Assembly (NCBI GenBank): GCA_037951105.1
Contig: JBAMJV010008980.1
Coordinates: 1 to 64,000 of the forward strand
Length of the DNA: 64,000 nt
Origin: Echinarachnius parma
Lineage: Eukaryota; Echinodermata; Echinoidea; Clypeasteroida; Echinarachniidae
Direction: 5' to 3'
The translations under genes and the position numbers were made by a program. The notes under the pieces are model-generated. The model was given only the letters and a program-made list of their open reading frames with translations. It had not been told where the DNA came from and did no database searches. Each line of letters starts with the position of its first letter. The stretch's first letter is position 1. This document shows, one piece after another, positions 13,906 to 62,309 of this stretch.

Positions 13906-15357
13906 CTTACATTAATCGGTAATCCCCTCTGCATGCTCGCTGCTGATACCTAACCACGGTTCGACCCATCAGTAAAGTAACATCTGGAAGAGAGCCATTT
14001 GATGGTTGTGGAGGGTCTTGATACGTCTTAGTCCGAATGAGGCACATACTGTTTTTTTTTTTGCTATTTGGTTTTGGACAGTCAAGCAGCTTGGTAGTTG
14101 CACATGTCATCAGATCCTTTGGTGTGTCTCTCAAAGCTGACTGGGGGTTATAGTCTAGGTGCCTCATTGTCATGTTGGCTTCTTTGGTAAAATTGCCATC
14201 GCTGTCCCATGCAGGGAGCCCTTCCGATCTGCAATGTCTTCTGCGAAGTCAATGTTTTCTCCTAGTTACAACATATGAGGGTATGTGGACATTACATTGG
14301 CCTTCATTCACTGTAGGGCAGAAGTCACAAATTACCCTTCCAACCGTATAGGAGCGTGTATCCAACTATTCACAATGTTGACGATTTTCTTGCTTCACAT
14401 GGCCTGGCGGTTGGCAACTCCAACTGCAAGCGTCCAACGTACTATCACTAAAAACCACAACTCCTTGTCAAAGGGATTTGATTGAGACCGGATGAAGTTC
14501 CTACCACCACTTGGTAACTGTCTACTGTTTGAGTGTTTGAGGTATTGAGATCACCGACATCCACGGCTGACCTTTGCTTATCATAATATCCCTTAGCTCG
14601 ACTAACCCTAATAAGACCGGGGGGCCATCATGCCCCTCCCCCCTCCGGAATTTCTGATTGCTCAGAAACGCGTAAGGATGAAAATCGGACCTTTTGTTAC
14701 GAAGTCACGTGACCTTTTGTAACTGCATGTTAACCCGAAATTCGCAAATTTTCGTGATTTATGTACAAAACATATGGAAATATGATTTTTTTTTTTTTTA
14801 TAAAAACAGATATATCATTTGCTAATTGGTCTTGTTTATTATACCTTTCAGGTATTTGTTTATGGGGTTAGAATAGTTAAATTAAAGTTGGAAATAAAAT
14901 AAAACAACAAAAACAATGAAATACATAAGTTAAAAAAACAAAGAAATACTTAAGAAATTATCAAAACAATAGAAACATAAGTAATAACCGGGCTCTTCCA
15001 ATTTTGTTTGTTGTATTATTTTTCAAAATCGTCTAAAGAATATATGTAGTGAAAACCAATGTATAAAGAATATATGATTTATGGGCAAAAATTTGAATTT
15101 TATTACCTTTTTTGCATAAATTACCATAAATATGCAAATTAGAGAATTTGTTGAAGAAAACAAAATCAACATGGTATTTGTTACATCTTACTTGACATGC
15201 ATGCAAGTTTTCACGACGAGTGGGCATTTCAAAGCCGAGATCTTAAGGGGGCCATAATGACCCCCTACCGAAAAAATACCTCAAATAGCCCGAATTTTTG
15301 TAAGGTTAAAGGGTGCCCTCTGCTGACCACCTGCACAAGATTTCAGAGTGCAATCAT

Positions 15358-21457: not shown

Positions 21458-22817
21458 AAACCTAGACCTCTGTATGTGCCCGATTTACGATACTGACTGT
21501 CAGTGAAATATTTATTTGTCACTAGTGTGATTTAGTATTGCTGCTAGTTTTAATACGGGATTGTGTAGCTGCGAAAGTATGATGTCATGGATATACCATT
21601 GTATACCCTCTGATTTTATTTCTGATAGAGTTTGTTATGCACATCTTGTTATAGGCTCATTAAAGTAAATAATAACTCTATATGAGTACTGAACGTAATG
21701 TAAATACATCATTTATAACAAAAAATAAAACAAATATGACCTCGGTTACTGCTTATTAATATAAATTGTTAATACAAACACATAGGCCAGATTTATACAT
21801 TTAGTAGAAACCATATTTGCGTGATACAAGACTTTAAAACCAAGTCAAGTGCAGACCTTAGACCTACAGAGAGGAATCGTTGTTTACGATATACAAATAC
21901 CCCTATAAAAGCCCAAACTTAGAATATGATGGCGGCACAGTTGTTTTAATTGTCTTTTTATTTGGGAACGTTTTTGCTCCCATGAATATAAAAGATTTGC
22001 CAATGTATGGTATTATTAGACCTATTAATCGATATCGAATATACATTGTTTGATTTGGAATTTGCTTCAAGGCAGATTTCGATGGTCGAAGCGGCAATCC
22101 ATCAATTGCTGCCCGATCTGTAATCGAGGGCAGTTTGCGTAGCGTGGTCGGACTTATGTTTTCTATTTTTTTCTCCAAATGCCCCCCGTCGCTACGCCAC
22201 GGCCCGCGGGTGTGTAATTGGTATGAGTGTTTGGACTTCGAAATGTTGATAGTTATACGTGTCATTGTGTGAAAAATAGGCCGAGGGTAAAATACCCCCG
22301 CGTTTCACATCCATTTAGTTACCCAATGAGTTTGAAGCTATGTTTTTTGTGTCGGTTTTGAATAGTATTTATACAGTTTACAGGGTTCTGTTCCTTTTCT
22401 GTAAGATCTAAAGGAAATCATTGTCAAAATCCTTAACATTTAGTTAAAACTCTCATGTGATATTGTATTTGTATTTATACCAATAGAAGCATGAACATAC
22501 ATTTCGGTTTAATATCTCGTTCGTTATAAAGATATGAATATTTAAAGTGTTTAGATCTTACATTCTCTAGTGGAGAATTTCAAATGTGTACAAAGTCAGT
22601 GCAATGAGGTAGTGAATACCACTTTGCATTATGTGCTCATCACTTGTGTCATAAGATATTACATTATTTACCATTTATTTGTCACACATCACTCAGTGGA
22701 CATATCTGAATACAAGATTAAACATTGTATCAACCCTTCGTCAGTTTGTACACGTGTTAATACAGTTATTTTTTCCTTTTAAACATTGCACGTTAGTCTT
22801 TATGACAATTGTCTTGC
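21458..22817. repeat. 1,363-bp tandem duplication, unit B
   Basis: Second copy, separated from the first by CCC. Starts AAACCTAGACCTCTGTATG and ends GACAATTGTCTTGC like unit A. Confidence 0.95.
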
Positions 22818-37765: not shown

Positions 37766-38153
37766 CTACTGCCTGCCATCAGCCGACGATGTTGATGTAC
37801 TAGGTTTTGATAGGTCAAGTGGTAGTTCAGCCAACTTGTCTTGGTGTGAATATTCGGCTATTCGAGCCACTGGTGACCCGAGCATCTTGGCCAGCAATCC
37901 CAGTTCAGCCTTCTCAAGGATATCCCGGAGCATTTCTTTCTGCTGAGCTCCATCTCCATGTTTTGTCTTCCACGCCATGAGAACTTCCCTCGCTGCGCCT
38001 GCGCTGTCCTTCTGGTGTTTCGTCAACATGTTGTCCAACTCCGTAAAGGGAAACCCGAGTTTGATCCCAAGCTCATGAAGCTTCCCATGTGGCACTTGTT
38101 TAGCGATGGCCATGATGACGTTATCGAACAGGCCAAATGAAGGAAGTTTGATC
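37766..38153 (-). CDS. terminal exon: Death domain
   Basis: The acceptor ATATTAG opens a 388-nt terminal exon with stop TAG at 37766-37768. It encodes IKLPSFGLFDNVIMAIAK, then a six-helix Death-domain pattern: HGKLHELGIKLGF, FTELDNMLTKH, AAREVLMAWKTKHG, MLRDILEKAELGLLAKML. The tryptophan in MAWKTKHG matches the conserved helix-4 tryptophan. A 35-residue Ser/Thr-rich tail follows. No clear polyadenylation signal lies close below the stop. Confidence 0.92.
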
Positions 38154-41100
38154 CTAATATGAAATTGTTATTGTATTATTGATTATCTTAGAATAACACG
38201 TACAAAGTATTTTCACTAGTGAGAACTACATATTCATGTGACGATACTTCTGCGATCAATATTGACCTACCATGCATGGCAAAGTGTGATTTAAATTTGT
38301 TTCTGTCACAGGTTTATTTTAAAGAAAATCTCAGCCATAAAGAAAATCTCAGCCACAATCTTTAAATCGATAAACAGATTGATATTGATGCATTTTTTTT
38401 TAATGTAAATACATCCAGAATAAGTAAGACAATGGTATACATATCTGACCGTATTTTTGTATGAGAACAAAATTGTTACAATATATTTCAAGAAATGACA
38501 ATTATCAGCACCATTGTCTTCAACTACTTTTACCAAGTAATGGTGTAGCTATAGGATGGGTCTTCACATGCCTTAATAATTTGACCAAATACATAACACA
38601 GAAAAACAGAAAGTGTATCCCCCAAAATTCACGTACCACCCACTCAGACCCAATCAGCAGACACGGTACACAGACATGGTAACTAATAGACAGTAAGTCC
38701 GATAATATGAATACTCATCGCTGACGTTTTTGTTGAAAGTAAGGAGCTCTACATCCGCAGATGAGTTTATACAGTAAGAACTCACCCATTTATAAAACCT
38801 GCCATGAAACACATCGTTTGTTTCTATTGGACTCTTAAACATTTCTTACCTAGTGCCACCTGCATCCGTCACATCTGGCCATTCGTTATCAGACTCTTCT
38901 TCGGATGCGATATCTGTCATGTTTGTTGTCACAGTAAGAATGCGGAGGAAATAAAACAATTACAGGACTCTTAAAACTTTCGATCTTTCTGTCCCTTCCT
39001 TGTTTTGGTGAATTTTGGTTGGTTTGTATAAAATCTAAACGATTTGGTGTTTATACAAGTATGTATAGTGAATGCATTAGACATGGTTGTATGGTCATAA
39101 CAATTAGCGAAATATATGTCGCGGCCAACGAGGAGATTTCTTGATTTGTTCATGTTTGGTATTTATTCCTAAAGTAAATCAACGCATTGTTTAATATTAC
39201 ATTTCATATATCTACTGACGAGATTCCGATGATTTGTAATAGCGGATACTTCATTAACTGAAGCCAACCTGGGAGTAGGAAACCCTCGGTCAGACACCTT
39301 TCCGAAGACCGCCAACAAGACCTGTAAAATCGCCCAACCATTATAAAAACACGACGCAAGTTCAACAGCTATATGTTACAATCTGCCTTCGCCTTTTGAA
39401 ATGTGTTTTAAGCGTGTGAAAATAATTTTTACGAAGCATCATTACTGTAGTAAATTATTAATTTGACAAGATTTCACATACTGTTTACTTCCTCACCATA
39501 TTCATTGTTTTGGGGGTATTGACATTTTGTATTTTTATGTAGTTCTTCATACATGTTCCAAAGTACTATAGCGCCACATAATTAGTGTGTACTATTACAG
39601 TAACTGTTATAACACTATTATTATAATTGTTATATCTAAATAATATTGCATACTGGCCAGTTCCGTTCAGGCTTTAATTTAAATAATTTGAATAGATCTT
39701 GGTCCCACTCACCGGGATTTTGATTTTTGACGGGTCTTGTTGATGAACCTGTTTCGCTGCAATACACAAAAAACGACAACGATGAAAGCTTTAATTTCTA
39801 TATGATCCGCCTATCATGCCCTAGTGGCTAATACTTTTCTGGCATGCTTAAAGGTTGCTTATTAGCTTGTCAATGATATGTAATTTTCATGTGACAAAAC
39901 AGAACAATTAAACTGCTGAAAATTTGTAGCATCTTCACGTATATACAAAGTTATTAGATTATAAAATACATACATGATGTGTAATATTTACATGAAGTTA
40001 TTTATCATTCTATCAAAAAGTTATGTGTAGTCACACATGCTAATGTTATTTGGGTACGAACACATTAATTTTCATGAACATTTTACATCATTCTTTTTCT
40101 GTAACATTTGTTTAAATTACAAGAAAGTAACCCTTCAAGACAAATTGACAAATGTAGCATTTTGGGGATCTACGGCCAGAAAACTGACCCTTAGCAGTTC
40201 ATGGGTTAAACATTCATGCATGAAAACAATTGCTCTTTGACAGACAAATCGTCTATTTCCTATATTATTCAGGATTTCTTACCTCAATCTTCGCTTCTTT
40301 CCCCTTCTCTTTTCGCCACGACTGCTCTGCTCATGAGGTCCGCCATCTGTACAATAATATGAATACGGAATACGTTATACGTATACATGGTAAATTTTAG
40401 TGATTCATTAAGATAATGTTGACGTATAACATTTGTTACTGTATTTTATTTTGGATCTTAATTATTCTCATAATTTAGATAAATAAATTTGAACAAACAT
40501 AGAGGGGGGATGCATCACTTTGTACTTGTTTATCGTCCGTCTGTCCTCCGTCCTCCGTCCTTCCGTCAGTCCGTGACGCTTAACAAATTTGAATAACTTT
40601 CCAACCCTGCATCTGTTTGTAACCAAACTTGATTGGTAGATGTCCTATTGGCCCCCATGATATTCTGGGGTCAAAGGTCGTACAAGTAGGTCAAATGTCA
40701 AATGAGGTCAAATGTGAAATTTGACCTGCAAGAGACTATTAGGGTTGATAATATTCCAGCCCTACATCTGTTTGTAACCAAACTTGATTGGTAGATGCCC
40801 TATATAATTGGCCTCCATGATATTATGGGGTCTGAGGTCGCATGAGTAGATCAAAGGTAAAACAAATTATAGTCAGTTTATACGTCAGTCAGTTCACACG
40901 TTATACGTTTGTACGCTATATGCTACGCGTGCTATATCACGAACTCAAGGTGCGACTTTCTCTCCATTCTCGTAGTTTTCACAAAGTCTGGTTAACACAA
41001 CCCTTATTCCAGTCACCTTGTTTGACTAGAAATTCTAGTAATATATTTGACTGGAAATTCTAGTCATATATATGACCGGAAATTCTAGTCATATATTTAA

Positions 41101-44100
41101 CTAGAAAAATATAGTTAAATTGACTGATACATAGTGGACTCCCAACAGACCCTAAATGCCTAGTCAGAGCTATAGTTGACTGATTTTTTCAGTCATTCCA
41201 TTTGACTGGAAATTCTAGTCAATGCATTTTATATTTTACTGGAAATTCTAGTCAAAATATTTGACTAGAAAAACATAGTTCAGTTGACTAAAACATAGTT
41301 GACTCACTGCAGACCCTAAATTCCAAGTCAGATTTGACCTGATTTCTAGTCAGATTTGACCTAAGTGTTTTAAGAGTGCATGTGTGAAACATTTCCAGGG
41401 TCACCTGGACCTGGGCCAATTTTGAAGAATTCTTGGCTACGCCATGGGTCTTGAAAATCATGTAATCCGGTGTTCAGGTTTGTACCTATAGTTATATCAA
41501 ATGTGTGGGTTGGGCAGTTTATTTTGGATTTAACGGAATACTCTGTGATTTGATGTTCAACATATAATTTAACCGTATATAGGTGACAGACTTACCAGGG
41601 GTTCTGCTTTCGGCTGTTCTGAGTGTACTCTCGCCCTCAAATATCTGTTTTGATTCAGGCTGTTGGCCAGCGTTGCCATTTTTACCAACATTTATGAGAG
41701 GTACTAGCTGTTTATCTGTGGAGAAGTTAGTGATTTAGATTACATGGTCTCGTTTTAACTTAGTGTATGTATTAAAATCAAAAAGTCAAAAGTGATAATG
41801 TGAAGAAATGGCCAAAGCCCCACTGTCTTGTTTCCCTTTTTCACTAAGTACACCGATTCTCTTCTAATTAACACTTTTACACACCATTCAGAAGAGTCTA
41901 ATGAAACATTGATATAAGATTGAAGTCTGTATTATCACTGTTTAGAGAAAGTTTAGAGAAAGTCAGCAATTCACTGTATTGTTCATTATATGACAATTAT
42001 ACAACTTAAAGTTACAGAAATACGATACGTAAAACAATTAGTTTTACTTAATGATACTTGGTGAGATAAATGTCGGATACCTTGACGCTGTATATTATAT
42101 CCCGTTCAGTAAATACAAAAGGGAGTCAGGACTATCTTCTAAAAGTCACATGCTTTACTAGCGTCGGTACCACTTGCCAATTATCACAAAGGATTTGTTA
42201 ACACCCTAATGTGTGTATTCAGCCAATTAACACTAACCTTGATATTCTGCAGAAAATAGTAAATAACTTTCATTAGTCTCTTGCTTCATGGTCACTTCTA
42301 CTGAATGCAAACTTCGTTCGTCCATATCGAGCCTGAAATCCCAGGGCGATGCATTGAGTTGCTTCAACACCTTTTTTGAGATGTTCTGAAAATAATAAAA
42401 GATTATTCATCGCATTGCGTTCAGATTAAATTCGAAGTATAGGCATAGGTAGCCGGCGAGCGGGCGAGGCTGTTTTGGGCTAGGAAACCACGTTTTTTAT
42501 TTTATTTAAACGGCCATATTTGGGCGATACCGTGTAATATTCTGGGGCAAAACCATGTCATATTTGGGCATTACCATGTCATATTCGGGCAAAACCATGT
42601 CATATCCGGGCAAAACCATGTCATTTTCGGGCAAAACTACGTCATATTCGGGCAAAACCATGTCAAATTCCGGCAATCCCATATCATATTCATGTCATCC
42701 TTGGGCCAAACTAAGCCATATATTCATGTCATCTTTGGGTAAAACCATATCCTATTTGGGCAAATCCATATCATATTTCAGCAAAAACATGTACATTTTT
42801 GACAAAACCGTGTTTCATTCTATATGAACCAAGTGATATTCTGGCAAATCAATGCCGTATATTGTGCAAAATAGTGTAAAATTCGGTTTAAACGCATGTT
42901 ATATTGGGCAAACTTGTGCTACGAAAGCCGTTTCATTTTAGCGACAATATAACGTTATTTCCGAGCATAACACTTTCATATGCGGGCAAATGGTGTAATT
43001 TTCTGACTAAACACCAACAACTTGTTATTTCGTGAATCATTGAAAGAGGCATACAATTCGTGTCTGTTTTGCTTGTCAGGTGCTCCTACGCCCATGATCA
43101 TTCAGATGATGAATACAAAACGCAAGCCCCGAAAACGTATTGATAATCTTGTGTGACATGCGATTATTATACAAACTTTCCTTGATACATTTTTTTTTCA
43201 TTTCGAAAATAAAACCGAAACAAGGAAATCATTTACAGCCGAGAAAAATAACTATGTAAGTTTTGAACAAATGGACGAAACTGGACGAAAATATGTCCCT
43301 TTTTGAGGTTTGGATGTATACTATAATATCGAGTCTTTCCCGTGCCAATGGTGGCAAATAAGGCGGTAGCCCTAGGCCACACGTCTACTAAATGTAGCTA
43401 CAGAAGGGGGGCCAGTCCTCTCACTGGTAACTCGTGTGATTAACTTTCCCTTCCTGGCTAGAAGGCAGAAGGTACCATTTTAAAGTCTTTGTGTGACTTG
43501 GTCTGGATTCGAACCCGGGACCTCCCGTGCATGAGGCGGGAACTCTAACCGCTTAGCCACTACGATTGGTGTTCTAGGATGTGCGAAAATGTTTTCTTCT
43601 ACTTGAGACAGATTGGTATTAAAAGTAGGTTTAATGTGAGTAGGATATAATGTGAAGTGATCGACCCCTTTTCATACTTCACAACAAATTACTTTTAAAA
43701 TGACCACACCCAACATAAGCAAAGCTTTAAACGTAATGAATCCCTTGATGAAATTTTAGTTTTGCACACGACAAACTTAACTGGAGAATCTCACATTTAG
43801 ACCAAGAAATACTCAGATTTAAATATTACAAGCTCACCTGATCTTTGGTTTTGGTGGGTGTGCATGTCATTTTCATAGCCTCCTTGTAAACGGGAATCTC
43901 CTTCTCAGCGCGAATTGGCCGATAGTGGAATAGCTCCTCCTTTGCACAGACATCCTAAATGCAATATCAAAACAATTGTTTATGCACTATATATCACACT
44001 AAATTACGTTTTCACATTGTATAAACACATGTACATATGAACTTATTCAATATGCATACTATTAACACACATGACAGCCGGCTCCTCATGTACAGCTGAC

Positions 44101-47100
44101 ATCGTTGAGGTTCTCTTGTCAGCTCTCTAGCAGCACCGACAACACATGTCACCATTTGATGTGTTGTTCAAGCGGGGGGGGGGGGGGGGGGGGGAGGGGG
44201 GGGGGGGGGGGGGGGGAGTCAACACGACCGATTGCTGTCGTGGACCACTAGTTTAGATTGCCAAGACCGATAATAAGTGGGTACCGATACCGATAACAAG
44301 TGGACCTTCTGACGTGATAGTAAATTTTGAGTTAAAGCTTTTAATGGTTTCGTCTGAAAGAATTACCTTATATATATAATTAATTAATTGAACATTATGC
44401 TCACCTTCCATGTTCCTTTCTTCGTAATATCATTGCTGTATAACCACACGTGAAGGACGGGTTGTTGGTCACCTGGCATATACGCAGGAAGAAATGGTGT
44501 GCAACCAAATGGACGCTTACTCAGAAGACTTCCTTCGAGTGTGATTTGATTTGGGGAAAAGTGTGTAAGAAACAGCTCCACACTGTCCTTAGAAACACGG
44601 AATTGTTCGTTCTGTAGTTCGATTCGCTCACAGGTTGCTCCTACTTTCAACATAGGATACAATAACACAAAGAAGTATGAATAAAGATATGGCTTTTTTT
44701 TTTATAACACTGAGTAAAAAAATGAGCATTTTCTGGGGAAGAATAATTATGTTTTAAATAGCATGTTGCATTGGTTGCATTTATAAGTTATTTCCATTTT
44801 ATTGTATGTCGACCATTTGTTATCCACAAAATGTGAGTATCACATAATTTATTAACCACCATGCAGACTTGTGTGTCAGTGATGACAATGCTTGGAAAAT
44901 ATTCAAATCAGACACATTTGACCCTACATTAATATGAAATAATACGCTCGAAAATGCAATTAAGTAACCTACCATCGCCATCATCACGGCCTCTGTAAAG
45001 CACCACATTCACTTCAGAAAGATCGGGGATAATTGCACAGTGGGGCACCGTCAGTTTAACTGGCTGCTTGAACTGTTTTCCACCATTGGTGACTTGGAAC
45101 CAAAGCTTGCAACTATCTCGCCCTCATCCAAGTTCATATCTTCCGGAATATCAGTGAGTACCCTGAGGCAAACCTTTTGTCTCTCTCCTGCAGGCATGGC
45201 ACCAGGGGGGTATCGTTAACTTGAAACCAAACGTATCCACGTGAAGTTCACCACCGAGTCATCAATAACTTTGCTTTCATATTCGTAGTCTGCGCAAGTT
45301 GAGTAATGATATAAGTGTAATGAGTTTAAAATAGCGTTAATATTGCGTCTATATAAAGTTACGTAATGACAAATTAGAGCGTCATATAAAAGTCATACAA
45401 TATTTGAATAATACTGAACATATACAAATCATAATATATGTAAAGACTCAGCCCCTGAAGTAGATTCTGCTAGGATCGAAAATTTAGGCCCTATATTTAC
45501 TCTCGTTTTATTACACAGGCATTGTATAGTATCAGTTATCAGTAGTACGTTTGCGTCATATATGTAATGGTGATTATGTTATTACTATACTAGCGACGTT
45601 CTATAAAACGGCCGGATTGTTAGCGCTAGTCAGTTGTTAAAGGGACTTAGTAACATTGTCCAAATCCCCTCATACCTTGTTGTATCTTATCAACAATAAA
45701 ATCATTGGACAGATCTCGGTTTTTCAAATTTCCCTTTCGTTAAAAAGATATTTACGATTGAAGTTTTCAGATGTCAAATTATCCAACAGATCGTCGGAAC
45801 CGTGCACAAAGTGAGTGCAATGAGTTGGTGAATATCACTTTGCATGTTTGCTCATTACTAGCCATTACTAGCCATTACTAGCCATATAAAGTTCATTTAA
45901 CTTTAAATGTTCACACAACACCTATTGGACATATCAGATAACAATAGTATACATTGTATCAACCACTCATCACTTTTTGCACATGTCAACATGTCAACAA
46001 TCCCTTAAAAATCCTCGCCAAGCATCGGAGTAGCCGGAGGCATTATGTTTTCGGGTTGTCCGTCCGTCCGACCGTCCGTCCCATTTTCTTTTTACGATTA
46101 GGCAGTGAGATTATCAAAAGATATTTAAAAACCTCTTTTTGTAAATTGTCTAAATAGTATTATTTTCGTAAATCATCTATTAAATGTGGCATCCCACATG
46201 TTATATCCGATCGAATACATTTATTGATATCTTATTTTGATAAAATAAAGATTATTCTGTCACTAAAATTGCATGCTCTTTCTAATTAGACACTCATTTT
46301 TTTCATCAACCTATACCAAAACTATTCATTGAAGCGCCCTCTATACCCAAACTTAACTATCTCTTTAATCTTGTATAATATTTTACCATAGAGACTTCTC
46401 AGGTCCTTTGTAGTGCTTCCATGCTCGGTGCATGGTCTGGTAGACCTCGACTCGCAGTCTGGACGAGGACAGTCAAAGATGACTTTTCCTTGGTACTTGT
46501 CCCCCATCCAGGCACTGCAAAGATCGTTCAGCTCGGTGCAGGCTTGTTGGATTGCCTTGGAAATGACATGGGTGAGACATAAACAATATCATTACATTCG
46601 ATATGAAAAGTTTTTGTTTTATGTTATTTTCTAAACAAATTTATCAGACGCTGATTGGACTTTTTTAAGGATGATAAAATAAATGTTATTTATTATGAAC
46701 TTCAAAAACTCAATTATTATACCATATTTGTATCATTCATATTGTAGAGGAAGATCGCTTTACCAATAGTTCATTTTCATGCAACTTATTGTTGAAACTG
46801 ATTAAAGCTAAATTTGCTAGTATTGATATTTGGTTCAGCAGGATATATTAATTGAGTGAAGTATTTTGAAATATCACAAGGCCTACCCTCTTTACTGTCG
46901 AGTGATCTGGACGCTTCTCTTTACAGGCCTCATGGTCTCCACCTTCAGCAGCCGATGATTTGTCCAGAAATATCACCTGTCAAATTAAATAAAACATTAA
47001 AAAGTCATCAAAAACGTAATGATCACGCCCTACGCTCCGCACTAAAAAATACCATTTAGAAATCCATATATCAATTCAAAAGTATATTAAATTGTATTAA

Positions 47101-50100
47101 TTATTACAAATTGGAACACTTTCCTATATAAGATTTACTTTTACCCAACATACTCAATGAATGTGTATTGGTTTTTAGAAAATATAAGATTTTAATAATG
47201 AAAGTTGATTTGGGACTACCTTAACAAATGTCTCCGGGAAATGCATCATCTTGATGAGAACGTCGCTTTGCTTTTCTTGCAGGATGATTTCGTGTTGGCA
47301 GAGCCTTACTTTGGGACCATACCTACGAGCCATGCGACACATGAGACGATGGAACAGGCCGTCTGCAGACAATGACACATTGATAGGAAATATAAACACA
47401 TCAATTTGCATCACATTAATTTTGATTTTGACATTTGATTTAGTTATATCATATTTCATACATTAATATCAGCTTTGCCATGTTTGCGTGAAAGCCATTA
47501 GTTCCATATACAAATAAGTGTTTTAAAATGTAATCAATTATATCTTAAATAAAACGCCTCTGTAATCATAATCGTAATAATCATTTTTTTAATTATGGTA
47601 ATAATAGTAATTCTTAATTATTATACTTAACAAATACATGTCCTGTGAAACAATCCTGTGAATTCACATAGCATTGCATCATTACAATCAACCCAGTCAA
47701 CGGATACACACTTAAACTCATTCATCTACACCAAGTCTAATCCGTCTAATCCACTAATTAAGTAATATTTGTCTTAATTCGAAACCACGCACCAACCTCC
47801 CCGGAGATCAATTACATAATCAGTACACATTGAAAGTTCGAAATCAGTAAGCCATGATTGGAAGTCAAACGTCTATCCGATCATTACACAAAACATTTAG
47901 TTATTAAACTGTAACATTTTAATTCAAGACTATTATATGCTTTAACCTTTCAGGAATACATAATTGACAGGTATGTTTTTACCCGGAAACACCTTTTCCA
48001 GGACTAGATATAGTGTGAAGGAATCTGTCATGCCGGGAATCCTCGGATTTTGTGCAGTTTCCATCGGGTTCAACAGAGAAGGAACCAAGAAACGCTTGCA
48101 ATCATGTCCCGCCCAATGCAGCCGGACGTCGGAGACAGGGCAAATCAAATCTAGCTCAGTCATGAGCTGAATGAGCTGCTTCTGAACTGCTGCCGGAAAT
48201 CTTCTCCAGACATGCTTGATGAAGCTTTCTTCCAATATACCATTTTCCTGTATATTGTTCCAAGCGATGCCAACCATGTAATCCTGTAAACAGAGTGGGG
48301 GAAATTAGAGGCATAACATGCACAAATAGCATAACATATGAAGATCATATGGTGATAGTTATATTAATATAGACAATCAAGTAGTGATTAAGATTACGTT
48401 TCATGTTTTAAAGATGTCTGCTATGACGTGGCATGAATTGTACGTTGCATGACCACATTTAGCAAATTTGGGAATAAATCGCAAATGTTGCTTTATGAAC
48501 ATTGCTTGTACTAATTGCAATACACAAAGCAAATAACAACATTCAATATATAGTTTAATTACTTTATCCGGTTATGACTACGTATGGATTTTCTAATGCG
48601 TAGTTAACAGACATCACAATTCTATACAAAATTGCGGAATTGCACAATGTTTATCATATCTGTAATTGTAAGAAGTCGCGATTGAGTCTGCATTAGTTCG
48701 CTAAAATATCAAAAAAGATATGCAGTCTAATCAACGCTATACAGGGTGGCCCAAAAAAAACGGAACGGGGCACTTCCCAAAATATAATACCACAATGTTT
48801 ATGTTCATCGGATAGGGTGTCTTTTCCAATGAAAAACGATACCAAGAACAGTAATTTTGGTCAGGTCGTTTTTGTTTAAGGACGCTGTGAGTGAGACCAT
48901 GTCAGGTGCCGATTTATGTCGATTTCGACCTAGTCAATGCCAGTTTAACCGCACTCCTTGCCCGTAATACCATGCCCATTCTCTCGGCACACGGCTGAGT
49001 GCACACTAACAATAGTGCGCGATGCTCAACGATATGAACGGCGGTTCGTGTGATTCATCATGCGCTGGCTCAATACAAATTGACAAAAAAGAGCTCCTGA
49101 CACGGTGTCACTCACAGCGCCCTAAAACAAAAACTACACGACCAAATTGACTGTTCTTGGTATCGTTGTTCATTTGAAAAGACACTCTATCCGATGGACA
49201 TAATACATTTGTTACTATATTTTGGGAAGTGCCCCGTTCCGTTTTTTTTGGGCCACCCTGTATTGAATTTGCGCCGAATTTGGCACACCAAAGATTCATG
49301 CCTTAATGCGGAAGATCCGGGTATATTTGGTCGAAAGAGGATAGCAAGATAGTATACTGTATGATACGTGTGGTTTGCGGTTGCACCATGTGAGAGGGGG
49401 TGGATTGGTGAGTCCTGAAAAGGACTATGGTAGTCCTAGAAAGGATTGTTGGTAGTCCTTAAAAGGACTGTTGATGTAGTCATGTAAAGTACTGTTTGGT
49501 GTAGTCCTGAAAAGGACTGTTGGTTTTCTTTCTAGGAGAGTCCTAAAAAGAACTGTTGTTAGTCCTAGAAAGGACTGTTGGTAGTCCTAGAAAGGACTGT
49601 TGAGATAGTCCTGGAAAGGACTGCTGGTATTGCGAGGAGAGGGTGGATGGTAGGAGGGGTTCTCGACGTTTCGAATAGGTTGACTATCCGTTGTCAGGAG
49701 TGAAGAAGATAGTATATGTCCGTATTCAATCATGACTACCGTGACTCACCGTGTCATCTGGTTCAAATATGGTGATGACTTCTTTGAACACGTCGACAAG
49801 CCACCGAGGATCTAAGATGACCAGGTCATTGAGAGCATTGCTGATGTCGGCAAAGTAGATAATCCGCCCGAGGTCATGGTAGAACGCCAGCATTGTCATC
49901 AGATCACTTACAATGCCGAGCTCAGTAGCAGTGGTCTTGATCTGTCAGGACAGATTGATAGCAGCAAAAATAAGGCTGTACTCAACTCGCTCAGAAATGT
50001 TTGCATTAATCTTTATTTTAATGTACATTATATTCAATCATAATTAGAAGAAACGAGAACTGGTTAGTAATTGGAACGGACATGTTTTGCTAAAAAACGA

Positions 50101-53100
50101 CAAGTAATACGTTACACATACATTTATACAATACCTCTTGTAAATCCTTCATTGGATTTTTGGTTCTCGGTTTGATTTGCTCCTGTTCAAATTTCATCCA
50201 GCGCAGGGGGATGTCTTCTCCCATGTAAGCCGCGTCAAGGGCAACTTCGACGATTTTGTCCTTTAGAGTTTGTATCTAATGGGGATGAAATAAGAAAATA
50301 ATGCAAACACATTTTATATAAGAAATATAATATATAGCATGCTGTTATTAAAGGGATAGTTGAGTATTGCTCAAACTTAACTTTAGTATTCAAAACCTGC
50401 ACCATTACGGTACAAACTAATAGTAATAACTCCACCATGCTCGAAAAGTAAAGTCCTAATACGGGACTAAGAATGAATATTGTTTGTGCACGCTAAATGT
50501 GCTTAAAATTATACATAGGATACGGTACTTACCACCGAGCCATTCTCCAATATGTGATTCAACTATCGGGTGGATTAAAATTATGATTTTTACCTCCATT
50601 CCGCTAAAAGTCATTGATTTATGCGCCTCCTCGACTTCTCTCCGTGTGTTAGTGCGACTCCGAACAGATTTTAAACAAAAGATGATCGCGATGGTCGCCG
50701 ATGCGAACGGCATAACGGCGCTTGCGAAACACATTGTATATGTATGCGCGGTAATAGTTACTGCGCACATTCATATTCACACGCGAAGAGAAGTCGAGGA
50801 GGCGCATATAAATCACTGATTTTTAGCGGAATGGAGGAGAAAATCATAATTTTAATCCACCCGATAGCGTTCTCTAAATCTGATTGCCTGTGACAATCAC
50901 TTTTATATAATATTTTGAAAGCAAATTTACAACAATGAGAGCATTTTAATGGGAATAATTATTTTTGGGGGGCGGGGGGGGGGGGGGAATACCAATACTC
51001 AACGCTCCCTTTAAGTAACGATAAGTGTATGGTCCCCGGGGAGTTGAGAAAGTACACAATATCATTGTGTGGGTTTGAAATGTACCTGAGGAGCACGTGT
51101 AATAATTATTGAATTAGTATTAAAGCGCAGTAGAGTATATATTAGCAGTAGCTGCGCTATATACATGTATATATCATTAATATTATTTGTACAATTATTC
51201 AAATTTAAATTCAAGAAAAAAATTTGATCTACGAATGTTTGTTCTTCATCCTTGTATTCTCACCTCTGGGTCTTTGTCTCCTAGTGAGTTTTCCACAGCG
51301 ATGTACTCTGGTATGACATGACCACAGTAAGGCTTACCCTTCAGACTGTCTCGGATCGTTGCAAAGGCAGATGCAATCTGGATGTGAAAGGATGTGTATC
51401 GTCTTAGCAACATAGTGGTATCATAGAATGATCAAGTCATTACTTGTTTGTGTTAATGAATAAATATTGATTGATTGATATATTTATATATATATACATG
51501 TCCGGAAAGTAATGTGTGAACATTTTAAGTCAACTGAGCGAAAATGTACATTTAAGCAAGCTCTGAAGACAAAACATCTATGCATAAATGTTTGTCTTTA
51601 TATTGATTTAATTTTAAGTTTGTATTGTGTAAATGTGTTACTATGTAAAACGCAAAAGGGATGTTTTTTGCATTATAATGCGCTATAACAAATTAATTTA
51701 TTATTGTAATTACACGGCTGAAAAGGTCCCGTAGATAATTCCATATCCAAATAATTCAATCGTAATACGTTTTGAACGAAATGGAAAATTGCAAAACCAA
51801 AACCTGTCACATGCTTTTATTGTTAATACGAATAAAATTCCAATTGGATTTTGAGGATTTTGATAATACATCAATATAGTAACTGTCTATCTATCTATCT
51901 ATTTATCTATGTATCTATCACTTTTATCTAAGTATTAATTTATTTACTATACATATGTTCTTCGAAAATCTATGCTTTTCGACATATCCACGATAAAGTG
52001 GACATGAACCGAACAAAAGTGAATTGCCCTATTTGAAATCATATCAATATTTGTTTGGTAATTTTTTCCATAAATCATGATCCTATAATAACATTGTTTT
52101 CATGTTTTTAATTCCCTGGTGTCCCCTTGCTATGCTTCGTTTTTCCTTATTTAAGATACCAAATTGAATGATTGAATAACAATAAATCTTTTCAGATTAC
52201 AATTGTTTACTCTGTGAGTGCCTTAAATATATTTTGTTTAATGAAACAAAATATACAGACAAAAAGGTTTCTCGAATAACCCTATCGCGAGTTATCGTTA
52301 CCCGAGTTACTAATTTGTATGTATCCTGCGATTTATGTCCAAATGATTTCGAATATTTCGTTAGACATATAAAATGTCAAATTAGCATTTTACATATTTG
52401 ACCACGATTACCTTTCAGATAGCGATTTCCAGTATCTAGATGTACTCAATATTTGACATGTCCATATTTCGTAACGCGAGTTACCAAACTTTTGATTTCC
52501 CGAAAGGTACCTAAAGAGAGCTCAGTTTTTGTTTTGTGTGTAGTCTATAGTAAATGCATGTCTCCTTAATGTTTGGATATACAATCAGCCTACTATACAG
52601 TATACAAATGATGCGCAGGTATGAGTGGGTCGGTAGGAATTGTTTGCACAAGGTAACTATGGAACTGTTAAACCCACGAGACGAAGCCGAGTGGGTTTAG
52701 ACTAGTTTCCATAGTTACCGCGTGCAAACAATTCCACCGACCCACGAAATAAACTTGCGCATCATCTGTTTTATAGAATGGGCATTGTTACGCCCCTCAA
52801 AAAGTCAAAAAATTTAAAATTTGAAAAATTACCGGATGCATGAAATAATTTTACCGGACGCATGAAATGTTTTACCGGACGCACGATTTTTTTACCGGAC
52901 GCATGAATTTTTTTACCGGACGCATGACTTTTCATGCATCCAGTACAATTAATTGTCTGCACACATTTTGCTCTCAACCAATCAGATTGCAGGGATTTAT
53001 CAACCCATTCTATAATCATTAATGTACCATGAAGTAGTCAGCATACCCTTCAATGTAACGCAAGTAAGAGTAGTAAAATCCCATTATTATGTTGGAAGTT

Positions 53101-56100
53101 CTTAATGTAAAATGTGTTGTATAATAACATACTGTATATGTATGACGACCACTGTACTTGTGTTGTATTATCTATAAGGGTACCACCATTTAATATTTAA
53201 TTCCAAATGTAATACTATTTTCATAAAAGAAAGTTAATATTTTGAGCAGTCATCAAAACAAAAAAGGTTTACAGATAAGAAAATGAAATTGGGGAAAAAA
53301 CATTACCATACTACAACATGTGTTCAGTGATCTATGTCTATGAATTACACAACCCTTTACAAAATGTGTGTCTATTTGATGTCATATTACACAGCGGTAC
53401 CCAAACAAATGATTGTGTTGTTCGTTGCCTGGCGGTCCCTTTTAAACCCTCATAACAGTCTTGCGAAACTGCCAGAAAATATCATCGAATTCTCCATGAA
53501 TTATCTAAAACTTTCGAGCATGGTAGGGTTATAACTATAAGTTTGTAATTCTATTGTGCAGGTTTTGGTAACTAAAGCTCAGCCTTATCAAAACTCCACA
53601 ATCCCCTCAACAATACATAACATTATAGGCCTACAACAAGGATTACATAAGTGTCCTTCCATAATAACTCACATACCCTCCCAATCGGACGGTTGGACCA
53701 CGCCGTGCCACATAGACTGAGCGGTATGCTAATGTCATTTGCATATAACTATGTAAGATAAACCTCCATTTACGCCGTTTATAATGTCAACATATCTGTT
53801 ACCAGTGTAGGAAGTTATGATAGGGTAGCCTACACGTATCACCTTTTCACGTTGCTTCTTTCCTTTTCCATGGATACTTTTCTTGTGAGTACCAACGATT
53901 ATAATCGGCGGGGAAGAAAGATTTGATGATATGTCTTTGACATCTGTAGGCGGCCTTGCATACGCAACGATTAGAGAGATCCATTCATGTATGAAGTCAA
54001 GGTTAGTGACAACGCTCGTAGATCCGCCTCTCGTCTGATATTGAAAGAAAAGGATAGTTTAAAGGAGAGAATAAATAAAGTATGGCACTGTATATATATA
54101 TATATATATATGAATACGTAAGTAATGTACGTTCACTTCACACACAAATTAACTGTAACATATATTAATGTAGAACAACTGATGCGTTTTTTCAGTAATG
54201 ATTCGTGATATCAAAAAGTAAAGTTACATGAATAGAAAACACCGACAAGCAGAAATATTAACATTGACGTGCCGGTCCTTGGTTTGATGAATGTCTATCA
54301 TACAAAGCGTTCTCTGGTCAATATAAATGTATTTATATTGCTAGAATGATATTGGTTCTGAAAATATTAATGTCCGTCCGGCCAACTTTCATCCATCCAT
54401 ATACTTTTCACGTATAATTCACATCATGTATGCTACTAACGTGACATCATCTGAATTCTATAGCAGTTGCCGTGGTAAAAAATAACTCCACGGTATCCAA
54501 TTTTCTACTAGATTAAGCATTGTTTTGTCGGGTGAGTTTTCAAACATTATTTGATGACAACCACATACTACGATTATTTATTTTGGCCACAAGGTTTGGA
54601 TTCTGATAAAATGTTATAACCATTGTGTTACCTTGCCAATAGTCGTGATCTTAGGATTAACGTCCTGAACAGCTTTTTCATGAAGGTCTTTGCTTAGATC
54701 AAATGCTAGGATGTACACAGCTCTCCAAGTCAGAAATACCTAAATTAAAAAAAATATATATATAAACAAACATAAATAAAACTTACGGAAGAATTCGATG
54801 CAAATTAAAATCTAAAAAGCCGCAATTGGACTTGCAGTCATAGATTATTCACAACAACCGTGAATATGCCATTGATAATCCATCGTGGATGTAGTGTGGC
54901 AAGATTGGTATAGCGCGCCTCCCAAACGGGAGATCTCGAGTTTGAAAAACGGGAGATCTCGAGTTTGAACCCGGAGTATGACCATCGCGTTTGTCCTTCA
55001 GCAAGACCATATTGCTGCGCTCTACCTGTCTACCCAGGTATATAAACGGGCCAACGGGGACCCGGTATGAAATTAATGCCTATATACAAACTTAATTATC
55101 AATGCTCATGAGCCGCTTGAAAGGAATGCTTCCCAAGGAGTGGTGCACACAACGTATGTTGGTTTGCATTGTATGCAATGAATGGGGTAATAATATAATT
55201 GTAAAGCGCTTAGGGGCCTTACCGATGATTATCAATCATAGAAGGCGCTATATAAATCTAATATTATACTGTACATAATACATGTTACGCAACCAGTGAT
55301 CAAAGTTTGAAGAGAAAGTTTAGTTTGGGTATATATAGAGGGCGCTCCAAGAAATAATTTGTTGTGAGGTAATGCACAACATAGTGTTATGAATGGAAGC
55401 GCACTTGATTTTGAATATAAAAACAAACTTCTCTTCATTAAAATCGGTTTAGAAAGAGTAGAAATATCAAATAAGTAGTTACGAACAGCCAGTCCGTGTC
55501 AACACTTAGTTCTATACTCTGTTTTATACACCTTTCCCCCATAAACGCGTAACCTGGTGCATCTGTACGCCCGGTGGATCTACGGAAACAGAGTATAGGA
55601 AAAGTTGGCAAGGCGAGGGAATTCGAGTGGATTTTCACGGCGGGCATTAGTCTTCAATATGAGTCGAATTATGGACATTGTACTCTGTGAATAACAACAT
55701 AATGAACACAGTGAGAATCCCATAGTAAAATGATAATGTGTTTCATTAGTGGGTGTATACAAAGAAAAAACAACATTGATTACAAGTGTTGTACAATAAA
55801 CTACTAAGTTTGAAGTGAAGATCTTCGGCTGACATTTGTAATTTGGTATGCAATACACGACGACGATCTGAACCTACGAGATATGTTCAACACAGTCGGT
55901 GCGCTGTCTATCACCCGCGATGGGCGGAGCTATTGCCAACTTTTCCTATACTCTGTTTCCGTACAGGTTCACCAGTCGTACAGATGCACCGGGTTACGCG
56001 TATATCAGGCCTGGCGTATATGGGGGAAAGGTGTATACAGAGTATAGAACCTAGACTAGTCAACACTAAGCACCTGCGCCGTAACGCCTGGTCTAAGACA

Positions 56101-59100
56101 ACTACATAAAGTCTATGCTAATCATGCAGCATCTACCGATATATAACAGGCCGTCAAACTTCCTTGCACCACACCCGTGAAATGTTGTAAGAATTATTGT
56201 AATACAGATAATAATCATGCGAGTGACACAAGTGACATGATTTCACATTCACCGAATAACACACTATGATATCTTCGTGTTAAATAATAAATGTGGAGAA
56301 AAATAACAACTTTGTTACTATTTTCACGGTTTGTTTGTTGAGTTGAAACATACAAACCCGATTCAATATCTTTTTACCAGAAGCCCAACAACAACGTACA
56401 AAAAAGTTGAATTTTGGCGATTTTGACAAAGTACATGTAATTGGATGCGTCAAGTGTTTCGAGCTTCTTATATTAAACAAATATACCATGCACTGAGAGC
56501 CTCTAGTTGAAATTATGGATTCCGAGGTGACAGGAAAAGCACTATGTTCTGAGGGTCGTAGACCCGAAGAACATAGTGCTTTTTCTGTCACCGAGGAATC
56601 CATAAATTCACTAGTGGCTCGAAATAGTGCATGATATATTTGTTTGATATCCTTCGCATAATCATAATCATCGCAAAAATTAATTATTTAAATTAAATTA
56701 AAGAAAAATATAAAGAAAAACAAAACATTGATCATGGAACCATCACTGCACTGACTATGTTCTGTTTGTGACACTGACCCCCTTTGCGCAATTAGTCCTA
56801 GCGCAGAGCGCGTATTGCGCTATATTTCCATTCATGGTTACGCGCCTTAACAATTAATGCGCACCCAAATGCAAAACGCGCGCATCAAAGTGAATAATTA
56901 ACCTGCTTTACAGTACGCACGTGTAATTGTATGGAGAAAATAGTTATTCATACATTACACATACAGCTAGTGCATTGCACACCGCGGCCGATTGTTAAAT
57001 GACGAATTATGTCACGACCACAGAAGGACAACGATGCACAATGTGCACCATTGTCGTAATTTTTAAATTCGAATACCGCTACGTTATACATGAAATGCAT
57101 CTCTAGAATATTCTTTGGAACTTATTGATATTCACGGGTGAAAATATGCTGTATTTCTTTTTAAATAACTCTTTGAGAAATCTCGTCGAGCATCTTTCGC
57201 AAGCTAAAACAAGATCTCTTCTCGCAGGGAAGTTTTATAACACGCATCTCTATGGGCTCAATATGATCACCCGGCGTCTATGACGTCATTCATGGAATAG
57301 CATTTACTATTCCATGAATGACGTCACGCATAGCACATTTTTCTCCATGGGCATTACTATGTTTGGTCACATGACGCTATGTAGACCAATCACTGAACAG
57401 GATTTCATTCATGTAGGATATAAACTGAAATGTTTAATAATATTTTGATATGGTCGAAATAATACAACATAAATCTCAGTAATAATTCTAGATACATACC
57501 TGATGTGTTGTGTAATATGTTTCATATCCAGCAAAATCCCAAATAGTGAAAGTGAGTTTGTTATCCTCTGTTTCAACAGAAGCTGTAGTTGCCTTATCTC
57601 GAACGAGTCTAAGGATGTCTTCGTCATGCTTTTTAGATTTTCGAGATTTCTTCTTTGGCTCAGTATCCTCTTCTAGACTTTGTCCTGGGAGATGGGCGAT
57701 TGAAATATCAGTTACACTTAAAGTGATCTATGTACTAGTAGTTCATAAGGTGTTTTTATCCAAATGAGATTTTGTTTCTGGCACCGAATTCGTAGAACTT
57801 GACACAAATTTGAACTTGACATTAAAGGCGTCATGAAAGACCGTCTAAAACAAAGACTATTCGATCTAAATCACTCTAGTTGGTATCAAATTTCCTTTAT
57901 AAAAATTGTCTATCCAGTGAAGGTAGTCTTTTCGTTTCTTGAAAATGGCTATTACCCAGATCGGATTTTTACTGTATCACCCTGTATTATATCACCTCTA
58001 TTTTACCCGTTGATTTGACTACATTATAATCTCGTTCCGGAAATTGTTTTAATTCAATCTTAAAAACTGCCATGTTTAGTAAAATATCATATTGCAAACA
58101 CCCTAACCCATTTTCATTTGTTTGTTAACATACAAGAAGAAACAAGGTAAATTAGTAGATTCGAACGGTCTTGATTGAATTTGACACTGTTAATGAAACA
58201 CGTACGATTCATTGTTTGCATTATAGGATACTAACGTTAATGAATAGTCTGAAAGTTTGAGCACGGTCGATCAAAAGGTACAACAACTATTTGGAAACAG
58301 CTGTTATTTCAACGAGTGTTTCAAATTGGCAACACACTATGGCATAGTTGTGTACAATTTCATGTATGCTTTGTACACCAAATTTCAAATTCTGTCCTTT
58401 TTCTAACAAAAGAAATGTTTTCACTTCGTTTCAGTTTAACACTTTGTAACATATATTAATACACAGCATATCAAAAGTTTGGGGAATAGACAAAAGGAAG
58501 TATGAACAAAATGGAACATATTATAATCTATGTGAAGAGCAGTCCGCAAACATATCAGAGTGCGTTTCAAATTTAATTCCCCCATATAGATAAATAGGCA
58601 TCTTCAAAGAGGCATAGATTTCTTGTTTCTTGCCCGATAATGATTTAACCTTCAGCGATTATTCCTTCTTATCTCTAAGAATCTCATATTATGGATACAA
58701 CATTTTGATTGCCGGGTTGCATTGTTCTTTAAGTGAGTAAAAGCGTACGTTAAATAAAATGGTAATATTATATGACCTATAATATAGATACTGATGTGCG
58801 ATTGGTCAAAATGCTGTCACGTGACCATCGCTACAAGGATGAGAAGCGTTATAGTTTGATTCATGACGTAAATTACGTCATACCTCTGAATATAACGTCG
58901 TTATATCCAGAGGTATGACGTAACAATAGGTATGACAATGACCAATTTTGCGCGTATTAGCATCCTGGCACGCGCAGCGTTGTCAAGCTTTCTACGGAGA
59001 TTGCGCGATCCGAAAGTAAATTTGAAAGGAAGTTTGAATAAAGGAGCATTTTGCGCAGCATTTCGATAACAACACGTCTGTTCTATAATTCTATAATTTT

Positions 59101-62100
59101 TATTTCAACACCAAATTTCTATTTATCTTGATTTGTATCTATATAGGTCATCATAATATAACAGATATTGACTTTTTCCTTCGGGAACCATATAACATTT
59201 CATTTCCCTTGGGGAGTTATATTTTTTTCTCGGAATACTTTATTCTTCCTCAGCGCTACGCGCTTCGGAAAAATATAATGTCCCTCGACAAAAATATAAC
59301 TTCCCTCGAGGATCTCAAATGTTATATTGCCCCTCTTGACAGTCAATATCTGTATAATAATACATTTATCTACACAGTACATGTTTTATGCAGAGTGTAT
59401 TCTAGGCAATCTACACTGGGCCCAAAGAGAAACTTATAATTTTTCACATGACCATATCCTAAAATCCTGGCGATGAAAATTAACCAAAATGACACACCGG
59501 ATTACTTAAATACTCTACTATAAACACATGTCCGTAACCAAGCAGTTGCCAGACTGACACAACCACAAGAAGCACTGACATGGAACAACTTCCGAGACCA
59601 CATGTCACAGTATAAGGGATAATCTGTACACTCAGAGCAGCTCTACAGGAAGAGAGGAACAACTTCCCCCAAGCCTGTATCAGCAACCTGGTGGACAGCA
59701 TCTGGTGGACAGCATGCATAGCAGATGCCCTGAATGATTCCAAGCACATGGTAGACACACCCACTATTGATGTCTGTGTTTGGGTAACTGACAATACCTT
59801 TATTTCAATTCTTGTTGACTTCCTCACCTGCCTTAAACTTTGTTGCCGAAATGTCCAGGCTGTGACATGTGATACAGCTAACGGTTCCATGCCAGTGTAT
59901 TTTTCAGTTCTGCAGGTAAGGTAACCGTTTGGATATTGACATGTCATTGGAGTAGGGTATTTAAGTAATCATGTGTGTAATTTTGGTGAATTTTGATGGA
60001 CAGATTTTCAAGATATGACCACGTGAAAAATTATAATTATTTTTTTTGGCCCAGTGTATAATGCCGATAATTGATGTAATAATTATTGGGCCTCTAACAA
60101 TCCACTTTCTTAAACAACATTTAAACAGACACCAAGAAGCCTACGTAAGGTATATTAATTTACACAAAGGAAGTAAAATATGTTGATAACTTCACCAGAT
60201 TAAGATATTTCCAATAAATTGAATTTACTTTATGCTATCAATTGGAAAGGATATATAAGTATAACACATCGATCAAGTAACTATTGTAAACGTGCTATAG
60301 CAATTTGGATTATTATTATCATTACCTTCTTGTTCTCGATTCTTTTCTTGTCGAGTAGAATCTTCAATGAACATAAACGTACATGGTAAACTGATTAATG
60401 CTAGATGTATGTAAACGTTTGCAAAGAGATTATCCAGACATTCAGTGTGTTTTGTTTGGGTAATTAATTCATTTAATCCAAGTATAAATAAGGAGCATAC
60501 AAAAAATACCGTGTTATTTAATTTAGATTAATTTAAGTGAGGAAATCGAATATATGCAACTAATATCCACATTGCAAATACGGACATTGTCACAAATCAT
60601 ATTTATAAATCATACACATTTTTGAAAATACACAAATGGTTTGTACTTTTGTTTGATTGATGATCTCTCTATTGATTAATTTTGTTAACTGATATCACAT
60701 TCACATATTTTGAAAAATATGGTTAAAACCTGAAGTGTCTGAAGGGCGCTCTCTTCTTAAATGAAAAGCAGAACCCATTACGCTCTTCTGTTACAAAATA
60801 CGCCAAAAAAGAAAGTACAAGAAAAGTGTGAAACCTCAATCGAATTGTTCGAATTTTGGCAAAGTTAAATGATCGCTTTAAGCATATTATTATAATCCGG
60901 TCTGGAAAGGAAAACTTTTGAAGGTCTGCGATTGGCTACGTTGGAAAGTGATTCTACGTAGTGATTCTAAAGTAGTGATTCTACGTTGGAAAGTTGAGTT
61001 CTGCTAAAGAGAGAAGGGTTTTGGTCAAACTTAATTTTAGTAACCAAAACCTGCACAAATACATTACAAACAAAATACTTATAACTCCGCCGTGCTCAAA
61101 AGGAATGAAAAATTACAAATGACTAAGTAAAAAAGCCTGCTATCTTTTAAACAGAGCCGTTAAAATTCAAAAGGGCGCCCTCCATTTTAACTACAATATT
61201 GTGCACAGGCCCGTAGCCAGGATTTTTCAATTGGACCTGAGACCGGCAAAAAGTTGACCTTTCTGAATTGGGGGTGTGGGGGGGGGGGGGGGGGGGGTGC
61301 GTACGTACCCAAATACTATTTGAAATGTATTTTGTTAAGAGAACCTGTTATTAAAATGTTGGACTCCAGTAAAAAGAAAACCAAAATTGATACCGGAACC
61401 AGCTCAAAGGGATAGTTGAGTTCTGGTAAAGAGATTACAATTTTGGTCAAACTGAATTTTAGTAACCAAAACATACACCATTCCATTACAAACTGATAGT
61501 TATAACTCCACCATGCTCAAAAGGAATAACAAATTACTATTGACTAAGTAAAAGCCTATTATCAAATCTATTACCAAATAAAACGCCTTCTAAAGGAATC
61601 ATGCATAGGGTTGGGGTTCGTGATGAGTGTAACGCATACGTTTGCTACAAGCATATATTATTTATTAGTTTCATTTCATTTTCAATACTAATAATTGTAT
61701 GACTTATCATGAGCATTTCCCTAAATGTTCATGAAAACCATCATCCGTTATCGCTCGTGCTTACGTAGGCTACTATTTGACAAACTGATCGCTTTTCGCG
61801 AAATGGCCCTTGAACATGATTTCGCCATGAACGCGCCATCTACATACCAAACACGTCATGATTGAATGCGAATTTTATAACGAATCTATTACAATCAAAT
61901 AGTACATTACCCGATTCATGTTGTGCTGTTTGCTCAGAAGTCTCATCCACCATGGCCATGTGTTCGATATTTCCTGCATATGGGATTTTGATTAACATAT
62001 TACACATTCCATAACCTAAGAGTAAGTGGTGCAAAACGTGGGCAGTAGCACATTTCCTTTCCAAGATGTGTATACGTCAGTGCCAGCAAATTCCCAGAAC

Positions 62101-62309: not shown

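What the first reader, a model, noticed from the sequence alone, without database searches (positions are those of the whole stretch)
37766..62309. Roco GTPase joined to a ZU5-UPA-Death module
Twenty-one exons with matching phases give Roc-COR-ZU5-UPA-Death in one chain. Human Roco proteins (LRRK1/2, DAPK1, MFHAS1) carry kinase, WD40, Death or nothing after COR; ZU5-UPA-Death is known from UNC5, PIDD and ankyrins, where UPA masks the Death domain. The fusion would place that autoinhibited switch under GTPase control, a plausible immune or apoptotic sensor in a lineage with many Death-fold genes.
Basis: partly seen in the sequence, partly recalled or inferred. Interest (0 to 1): 0.75.

Follow-up and report, generated by a model that had tools for sequence, protein, structure and literature searches.

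The report
Roco–ZU5–Death gene, broken as sequenced
An animal gene appears to join a Roco-type GTPase region to a ZU5 and a Death domain, but in this DNA the ZU5 exon is out of frame, the GTP-binding loop was not found in the window and one claimed domain (UPA) could not be confirmed.

Summary
The exon chain is mostly real. Twenty minus-strand exons (57684-37766) have AG/GT borders, and 19 of them join in one open frame. Pfam finds Roc (partial), COR-A and Death above cut-off, and a single-sequence fold of the Death exon resembles solved death domains. "One chain with matching phases" fails at the ZU5 exon (45289-44973). ZU5 is there: 24.2 bits in one frame that holds stops, 46.8 when the reading switches frame three times (cut-off 21). 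The plain join has 17 stops. None of 849 one- or two-intron rescues tested keeps the first two ZU5 pieces whole. Skipping that exon keeps the frame. UPA is not detected by Pfam or a small home-made profile. GTPase control is weak: no P-loop was found in the 6.3 kb upstream, and the G4 motif reads THKK. New here: an HF/S site like PIDD's self-cleavage motif, at the end of ZU5. Most likely this is a Roco-ZU5-Death gene with local sequence errors or a recently disabled exon: a new mix of known modules. Eight searches of the held papers (capped lists) showed no Roc-COR-ZU5 protein; eukaryotic protein databases could not be searched.

The parts
57500..57684 (-). Roc exon 1, up to DxxG (WDFAG); no P-loop in it
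   Evidence: borders; Pfam Roc 35.3 bits over profile 41-94/119
54632..54739 (-). Roc exon 2 (VFLTWRAVYILAFDLSK...)
53843..54034 (-). Roc exon 3, contains the G4 region GTHKKS (LRRK2 has GTHLD)
51264..51377 (-). Roc exon 4
50135..50275 (-). Roc-COR linker / COR-A start
49750..49941 (-). COR-A exon
   Evidence: COR-A 67.5 bits
47983..48283 (-). COR-A end / COR-B start exon
47220..47362 (-). COR-B-like exon
   Evidence: COR-B 12.7 bits, below its cut-off of 27
46896..46976 (-). COR-B-like exon
46387..46555 (-). COR-B-like exon (COR6), ends in phase 1
44973..45289 (-). ZU5 exon (ZU5a), frame-broken: frame changes inferred near 45255, 45207 and 45104-45093; TAA at 45218-45216 in the incoming frame
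44405..44640 (-). end of ZU5 and start of the UPA-position region (ZU5b)
44555..44563 (-). HFS codons: predicted HF/S autoproteolysis site
   Evidence: position; motif as in PIDD, PMC3210808
43838..43954 (-). exon in the UPA position (domain not confirmed)
42238..42385 (-). exon in the UPA position (domain not confirmed)
41596..41715 (-). linker exon 1
41411..41485 (-). linker exon 2
40283..40346 (-). linker exon 3, basic stretch GEKRRGKKRRL
39713..39756 (-). linker exon 4
38850..38913 (-). linker exon 5
37766..38153 (-). Death domain exon with stop codon
   Evidence: Pfam Death 23.2 bits (cut-off 22.6); fold pLDDT 69.9; the first 27 of 62 Foldseek matches (50 listed) are death-domain entries

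Best explanation
This is a ROCO-family gene of an animal (host not named; no genome held). Its chain runs Roc-COR, ZU5, a UPA-position region, a linker and a C-terminal Death domain. The start of the gene, with any P-loop and sensor repeats, lies outside the window or is lost. Proposed mechanism: the N-terminal part, dimerised through COR, carries the ZU5 fold; ZU5 cuts itself at HF/S (44563-44555), as in PIDD and NLRP1/CARD8; the two pieces stay together until a signal frees the C-terminal piece, whose Death domain then recruits a death-fold partner. Shown: the open exon chain outside ZU5, a Roc remnant, COR-A, a Death domain, ZU5 sequence similarity, and the HFS motif. Inferred: one transcript, COR dimerisation, self-cleavage and the signalling role. 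In the DNA as given the ZU5 exon cannot be translated through. I favour local sequence or assembly indels over true decay, because the inferred indels lie in one exon while the rest of the chain is open.
For: Open frame of 960 codons over 19 exons with ZU5a left out. Roc, COR-A and Death pass Pfam. Best PDB relatives of Roc-COR are LRRK2 (best E 7e-13) and, among others, 3dpu and 4wnr, prokaryotic Roco entries (that name recalled). ZU5a gives Pfam ZU5 at 24.2 bits in one frame and 46.8 bits with three frame changes (cut-off 21); the latter reading hits the ZU5 proteins ZO-1 (E 8e-4) and UNC5B (E 0.013). Frame-aware alignment to these two (shift penalty -5, four shifts each) scores 98 and 96; the best of 60 shuffles was 46 for each. 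HFS lies about 123 residues after the ZU5 start (counted); the chance of HFS anywhere in that 78-residue exon is about 0.6%. The first 27 of 62 Foldseek matches of the Death exon are death-domain entries. The three inferred frame changes fall in an exon of 317 of 3199 coding nt.
Against: The ZU5 exon has a stop and inferred frame changes, so the protein as described cannot be made from this DNA. UPA is undetected. The third inferred frame change (near 45255) rests on the join to the upstream exon, not on the ZU5 alignment. P-loop not found and G4 altered. Foldseek E-values are all above 0.001 (best 0.039), on a single-sequence model with pLDDT 69.9 (the other four models 50.2 to 63.0); phmmer of the Death exon against PDB sequences found no death domain. 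COR-B is below cut-off. No transcript and no relative with this architecture could be examined.
Confidence: 0.55

Rival explanations
1. A disabled copy: the gene is real in origin but this copy is a recent pseudogene. It has lost the P-loop exon and carries frameshifts in ZU5.
For: TAA and inferred frame changes in ZU5a; no P-loop found in 6.3 kb upstream although the longest intron in the chain is 2.76 kb; G4 reads THKK.
Against: The other 19 exons hold an open frame of 960 codons with AG/GT borders, which is unlikely for an old pseudogene. The frame damage is confined to one exon.
Confidence: 0.25
2. Two neighbouring genes read as one: a Roco gene ending soon after COR-B and a separate ZU5-Death gene.
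For: Read past its donor, the last COR exon meets a stop about 60 nt further on (ORF end 46322; exon end 46387). The COR-to-ZU5 intron is 1.1 kb. No transcript is available.
Against: COR6 leaves phase 1; ZU5a as incoming frame starts DYEYESK and ZU5b also takes phase 1; one phase match in three would be chance. I did not search the intron for a start exon or promoter.
Confidence: 0.12
3. A working Roc-COR-Death protein that skips the decaying ZU5a exon. Skipping keeps the frame, leaving the end of ZU5 with its HFS motif.
For: COR6 leaves phase 1 and ZU5b needs phase 1; the joined frame is open to the stop.
Against: Part of a ZU5 fold is unlikely to stand alone (inference). The ZU5a sequence still looks conserved at protein level.
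Confidence: 0.08

Closest known systems
PIDD1 (LRR-ZU5-ZU5-UPA-Death)
   Same: ZU5 followed by a C-terminal Death domain; HF/S motif at the end of ZU5 as reported for PIDD (PMC3210808)
   Different: Roc-COR in front instead of LRRs; one ZU5 found, not two; UPA not confirmed; about 120-residue linker before Death
NLRP1 / CARD8 FIIND
   Same: ZU5-type self-cleaving module before a death-fold domain (PMC3210808)
   Different: Death rather than CARD; SF/S there, HF/S here; UPA-FIIND model not hit
UNC5B and ankyrins (ZU5-UPA-Death)
   Same: ZU5 sequence match to UNC5B 3g5b; same order of ZU5 and Death
   Different: Roc-COR in front; UPA not recognised; long linker
[quoted passage not shown]
   Same: Roc-COR with a Death domain
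   Different: A ZU5 module between COR and Death; no kinase or ankyrin repeats seen in the stretches scanned
Invertebrate ZU5 or TIR shuffles: NACHT-Zu5 (PMC12909245), LRR-ZU5-kinase in amphioxus (PMC9573974), TLR/MyD88 with ROCO in Aplysia (PMC9334734)
   Same: Same style of module shuffling in animal immune genes
   Different: None of the passages seen reports Roc-COR with ZU5

Membership tests
Roco (Roc-COR) proteins | Roc followed directly by COR | tested here: met
   Roc 35.3 bits (cut-off 27), COR-A 67.5 (35.3), in order; COR-B 12.7, below its cut-off of 27
Roco (Roc-COR) proteins | GTP-binding motifs: P-loop G1, DxxG G3, THxD/NKxD G4 (motifs recalled) | tested here: inconclusive
   G3 WDFAG present; G4 reads THKK against THLD of LRRK2; no GxxxxGK[ST] found upstream in the window, but the first exon may lie outside it
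ZU5-UPA-Death proteins (UNC5, PIDD, ankyrin) | ZU5 sequence similarity | tested here: met
   24.2 bits in one frame of the exon with X at its stops, no hit in the other two; 46.8 with three frame changes marked X; cut-off 21
ZU5-UPA-Death proteins (UNC5, PIDD, ankyrin) | ZU5 in one open reading frame of the chain | tested here: not met
   17 stops in the plain join; the frame that scores holds stops; none of 849 intron rescues keeps the first two ZU5 pieces whole
ZU5-UPA-Death proteins (UNC5, PIDD, ankyrin) | UPA domain between ZU5 and Death | tested here: inconclusive
   No Pfam UPA or UPA-FIIND hit at E up to 10; home-made FIIND-UPA profile: 76 of 5000 shuffles score as high
ZU5-UPA-Death proteins (UNC5, PIDD, ankyrin) | C-terminal Death domain | tested here: met
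   23.2 bits, cut-off 22.6; first 27 of 62 Foldseek matches are death-domain entries, best E 0.039
Autoproteolytic ZU5 (PIDD, NLRP1, CARD8) | HF/S or SF/S at the end of ZU5 | tested here: met
   HFS at 44563-44555; motif described in PMC3210808
Autoproteolytic ZU5 (PIDD, NLRP1, CARD8) | Actual self-cleavage | not testable with these tools
   Needs expression of an intact protein

The most novel reading that the evidence does not exclude
An intact allele encodes a Roco-ZU5-Death protein that cuts itself at HF/S and releases a Death-domain fragment, that is, a PIDD/NLRP1-like release switch mounted on a Roco dimer whose Roc may be a pseudo-GTPase. This would be a new architecture among Roco proteins and autoproteolytic death-fold sensors.
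Probability: 0.3. Interest if true: 0.6.

Novelty: new variant of a known kind. Interest (0 to 1): 0.35.

Why it matters
If intact copies exist, the gene joins two regulated modules (Roco dimerisation and ZU5 self-cleavage) in front of a Death domain. It could show how animal lineages rebuilt PIDD- or NLRP1-like release switches on other scaffolds. If the copy is broken, it is a warning that domain chains read by eye can hide frame changes.

Tried and rejected
UPA: Pfam at E up to 10 gave no UPA or UPA-FIIND hit. A home-made profile of three FIIND UPAs gave 3.3 bits; 76 of 5000 shuffles scored at least as high (4258 of the 5000 got any score), and 3 of 220 scored control segments of the window scored higher (3.4-3.7 bits). 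Profiles with UNC5B and ankyrins were weaker: 534 and 418 of 5000 shuffles as high, and in the UNC5B-ankyrin profile the reversed sequence scored above the real one. I do not call UPA.

P-loop: pattern searches on both strands and on the minus strand above 57.4 kb found none in context. Ten stop-free ORFs from that stretch, not all of it, gave two matches, both far below cut-off. A degenerate P-loop cannot be excluded.

Rescue by splicing: 30 one-intron and 819 two-intron solutions inside ZU5a keep an open frame; none keeps the first or second ZU5 piece whole; 161 keep the third. Frame-shift alignment at zero penalty was uninformative (30 or more shifts) and is not used. At penalty -10 two shifts remain for both references (83 and 85, against 50 and 51 with no shift); at -5 there are four shifts (98 and 96). 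The no-shift scores already exceed the best shuffle at -5, which was 46.

An earlier thought that no single frame reaches the ZU5 cut-off was wrong: one search had tested only parts of two frames; the full test gives 24.2 bits in one frame.

NCBIfam gave nothing for two pieces. phmmer of the Death exon against PDB sequences gave two unrelated weak hits (best E 0.073).

Full report
What was checked. The window's genome is not held. It looks like an animal's (inference from Death and ZU5 domains with long introns). I read the minus strand from 64 kb to 37.5 kb and built an exon table: 20 exons from 57684 to the stop codon at 37768-37766, with introns of 110 to 2760 nt.

The chain outside ZU5 is sound. 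With the exon ZU5a left out, the other 19 exons give one open frame of 960 codons, the first one incomplete, ending at that stop. Pfam finds Roc at 35.3 bits (profile positions 41-94 of 119), COR-A at 67.5 and Death at 23.2 (cut-offs 27, 35.3, 22.6). COR-B is below its cut-off (12.7 against 27). The best solved relatives of the Roc-COR part are LRRK2 entries; 3dpu and 4wnr, which I recall as prokaryotic Roco structures, follow. The Death exon, folded alone, gives seven helices at mean pLDDT 69.9. The first 27 of its 62 Foldseek matches in the PDB (50 listed) are death-domain entries, though no E-value is below 0.001. By sequence alone phmmer found no death domain in the PDB.

The ZU5 exon is broken as given. 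Two frames alternate: the incoming frame reads DYEYESKVIDD; the ZU5 start GGELHVDTFGFKLTIP is in another frame; GAMPAGERQKVCLRVLTD... is back in the first; VTNGGKQFKQPVKLTVPHC... is again in the other. With X at stops, that other frame alone scores 24.2 bits for Pfam ZU5 (cut-off 21) and the remaining two frames nothing. Setting the four pieces in order with X at the three changes gives 46.8 bits. A frame-aware alignment to ZO-1 and UNC5B supports changes near 45207, at a run of six C, and near 45104, for both references at shift penalty -10 (83 and 85, against 50 and 51 without shifts). At -5 it scores 98 and 96 with four shifts, against a best of 46 among 60 shuffles for each. The third change, near 45255, follows from the join to the upstream exon only. 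Including the exon plainly gives 17 stops, the first at residue 567. None of 849 one- or two-intron rescues keeps the first two ZU5 pieces whole.

Meaning of the break. The three inferred changes fall in an exon that is 317 of 3199 coding nt; three independent random changes would do so with a chance near 0.001, counted after the fact. This fits a local sequence problem or a recently disabled exon better than a long-dead gene. Skipping the exon keeps the frame, so a shorter isoform is possible.

UPA is not detected by Pfam, and a profile built from three FIIND UPAs of solved structures gives a weak score that 76 of 5000 shuffles match. GTPase control is not shown: no P-loop was found in the 6.3 kb upstream, and the G4 motif, THLD in LRRK2, reads THKK here. 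If the first exon lies outside the window the P-loop may be there; the G4 change would remain. The linker of about 120 residues before Death (367 nt) also differs from the compact UNC5 arrangement (recalled).

The exon after ZU5a carries HFS at 44563-44555, about 123 residues after the ZU5 start (counted). [quoted passage not shown]). Finding HFS by chance in that exon has a probability near 0.6%. This supports a self-cleaving ZU5, by motif only.

Comparison with print. Eight searches of the held library showed no paper reporting a Roc-COR-ZU5 protein. The lists were capped (for example 20 of 306), one search had no result, and beyond the papers named here I saw only listings. [quoted passage not shown] ROCO with TIR in Aplysia (PMC9334734, passages); LRR-ZU5-kinase in amphioxus (PMC9573974, passages); NACHT-Zu5 in early animals (PMC12909245, passages); bacterial Roco-like GTPases with at least 24 kinds of C-terminal domain (PMC8195603, passages). 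Passages of PMC7159879 added nothing on ZU5. Eukaryotic protein databases could not be searched, so absence from these lists is weak evidence of novelty.

Verdict. A Roco-ZU5-Death gene is the likeliest reading, but this copy cannot be translated as described. GTPase control and UPA masking are unsupported. A PIDD-like HF/S release switch is the most interesting possibility left open.

Noticed in passing
20095-21454 and 21458-22817: Tandem duplication of 1360 nt at 99.8% identity, without gaps: recent duplication or an assembly duplication.
   Followed up: partly
329-2817: Long degenerate tandem array of units such as TATTATGACTAGCGACC.
   Followed up: no
42524-42862: 21-nt tandem repeat inside the intron between the two UPA-position exons.
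   Followed up: no
48739-49263: Inverted repeat with 216-nt arms, 81% complementary, in a COR intron: transposon-like.
   Followed up: no
15822-16274 +: Weak zf-RVT match (25.5 bits, cut-off 27.5): likely LINE remnant.
   Followed up: no
15310-15696 +: Sub-threshold UPA-FIIND match (13.7 bits, cut-off 27) beside the LINE remnant; taken as chance.
   Followed up: no
40283-40346 -: Basic stretch GEKRRGKKRRL in the linker, possibly a nuclear localisation signal.
   Followed up: no
220, 8312, 44174, 44196, 61278: C or G runs of 20 to 23 bases; regions prone to sequencing error.
   Followed up: no
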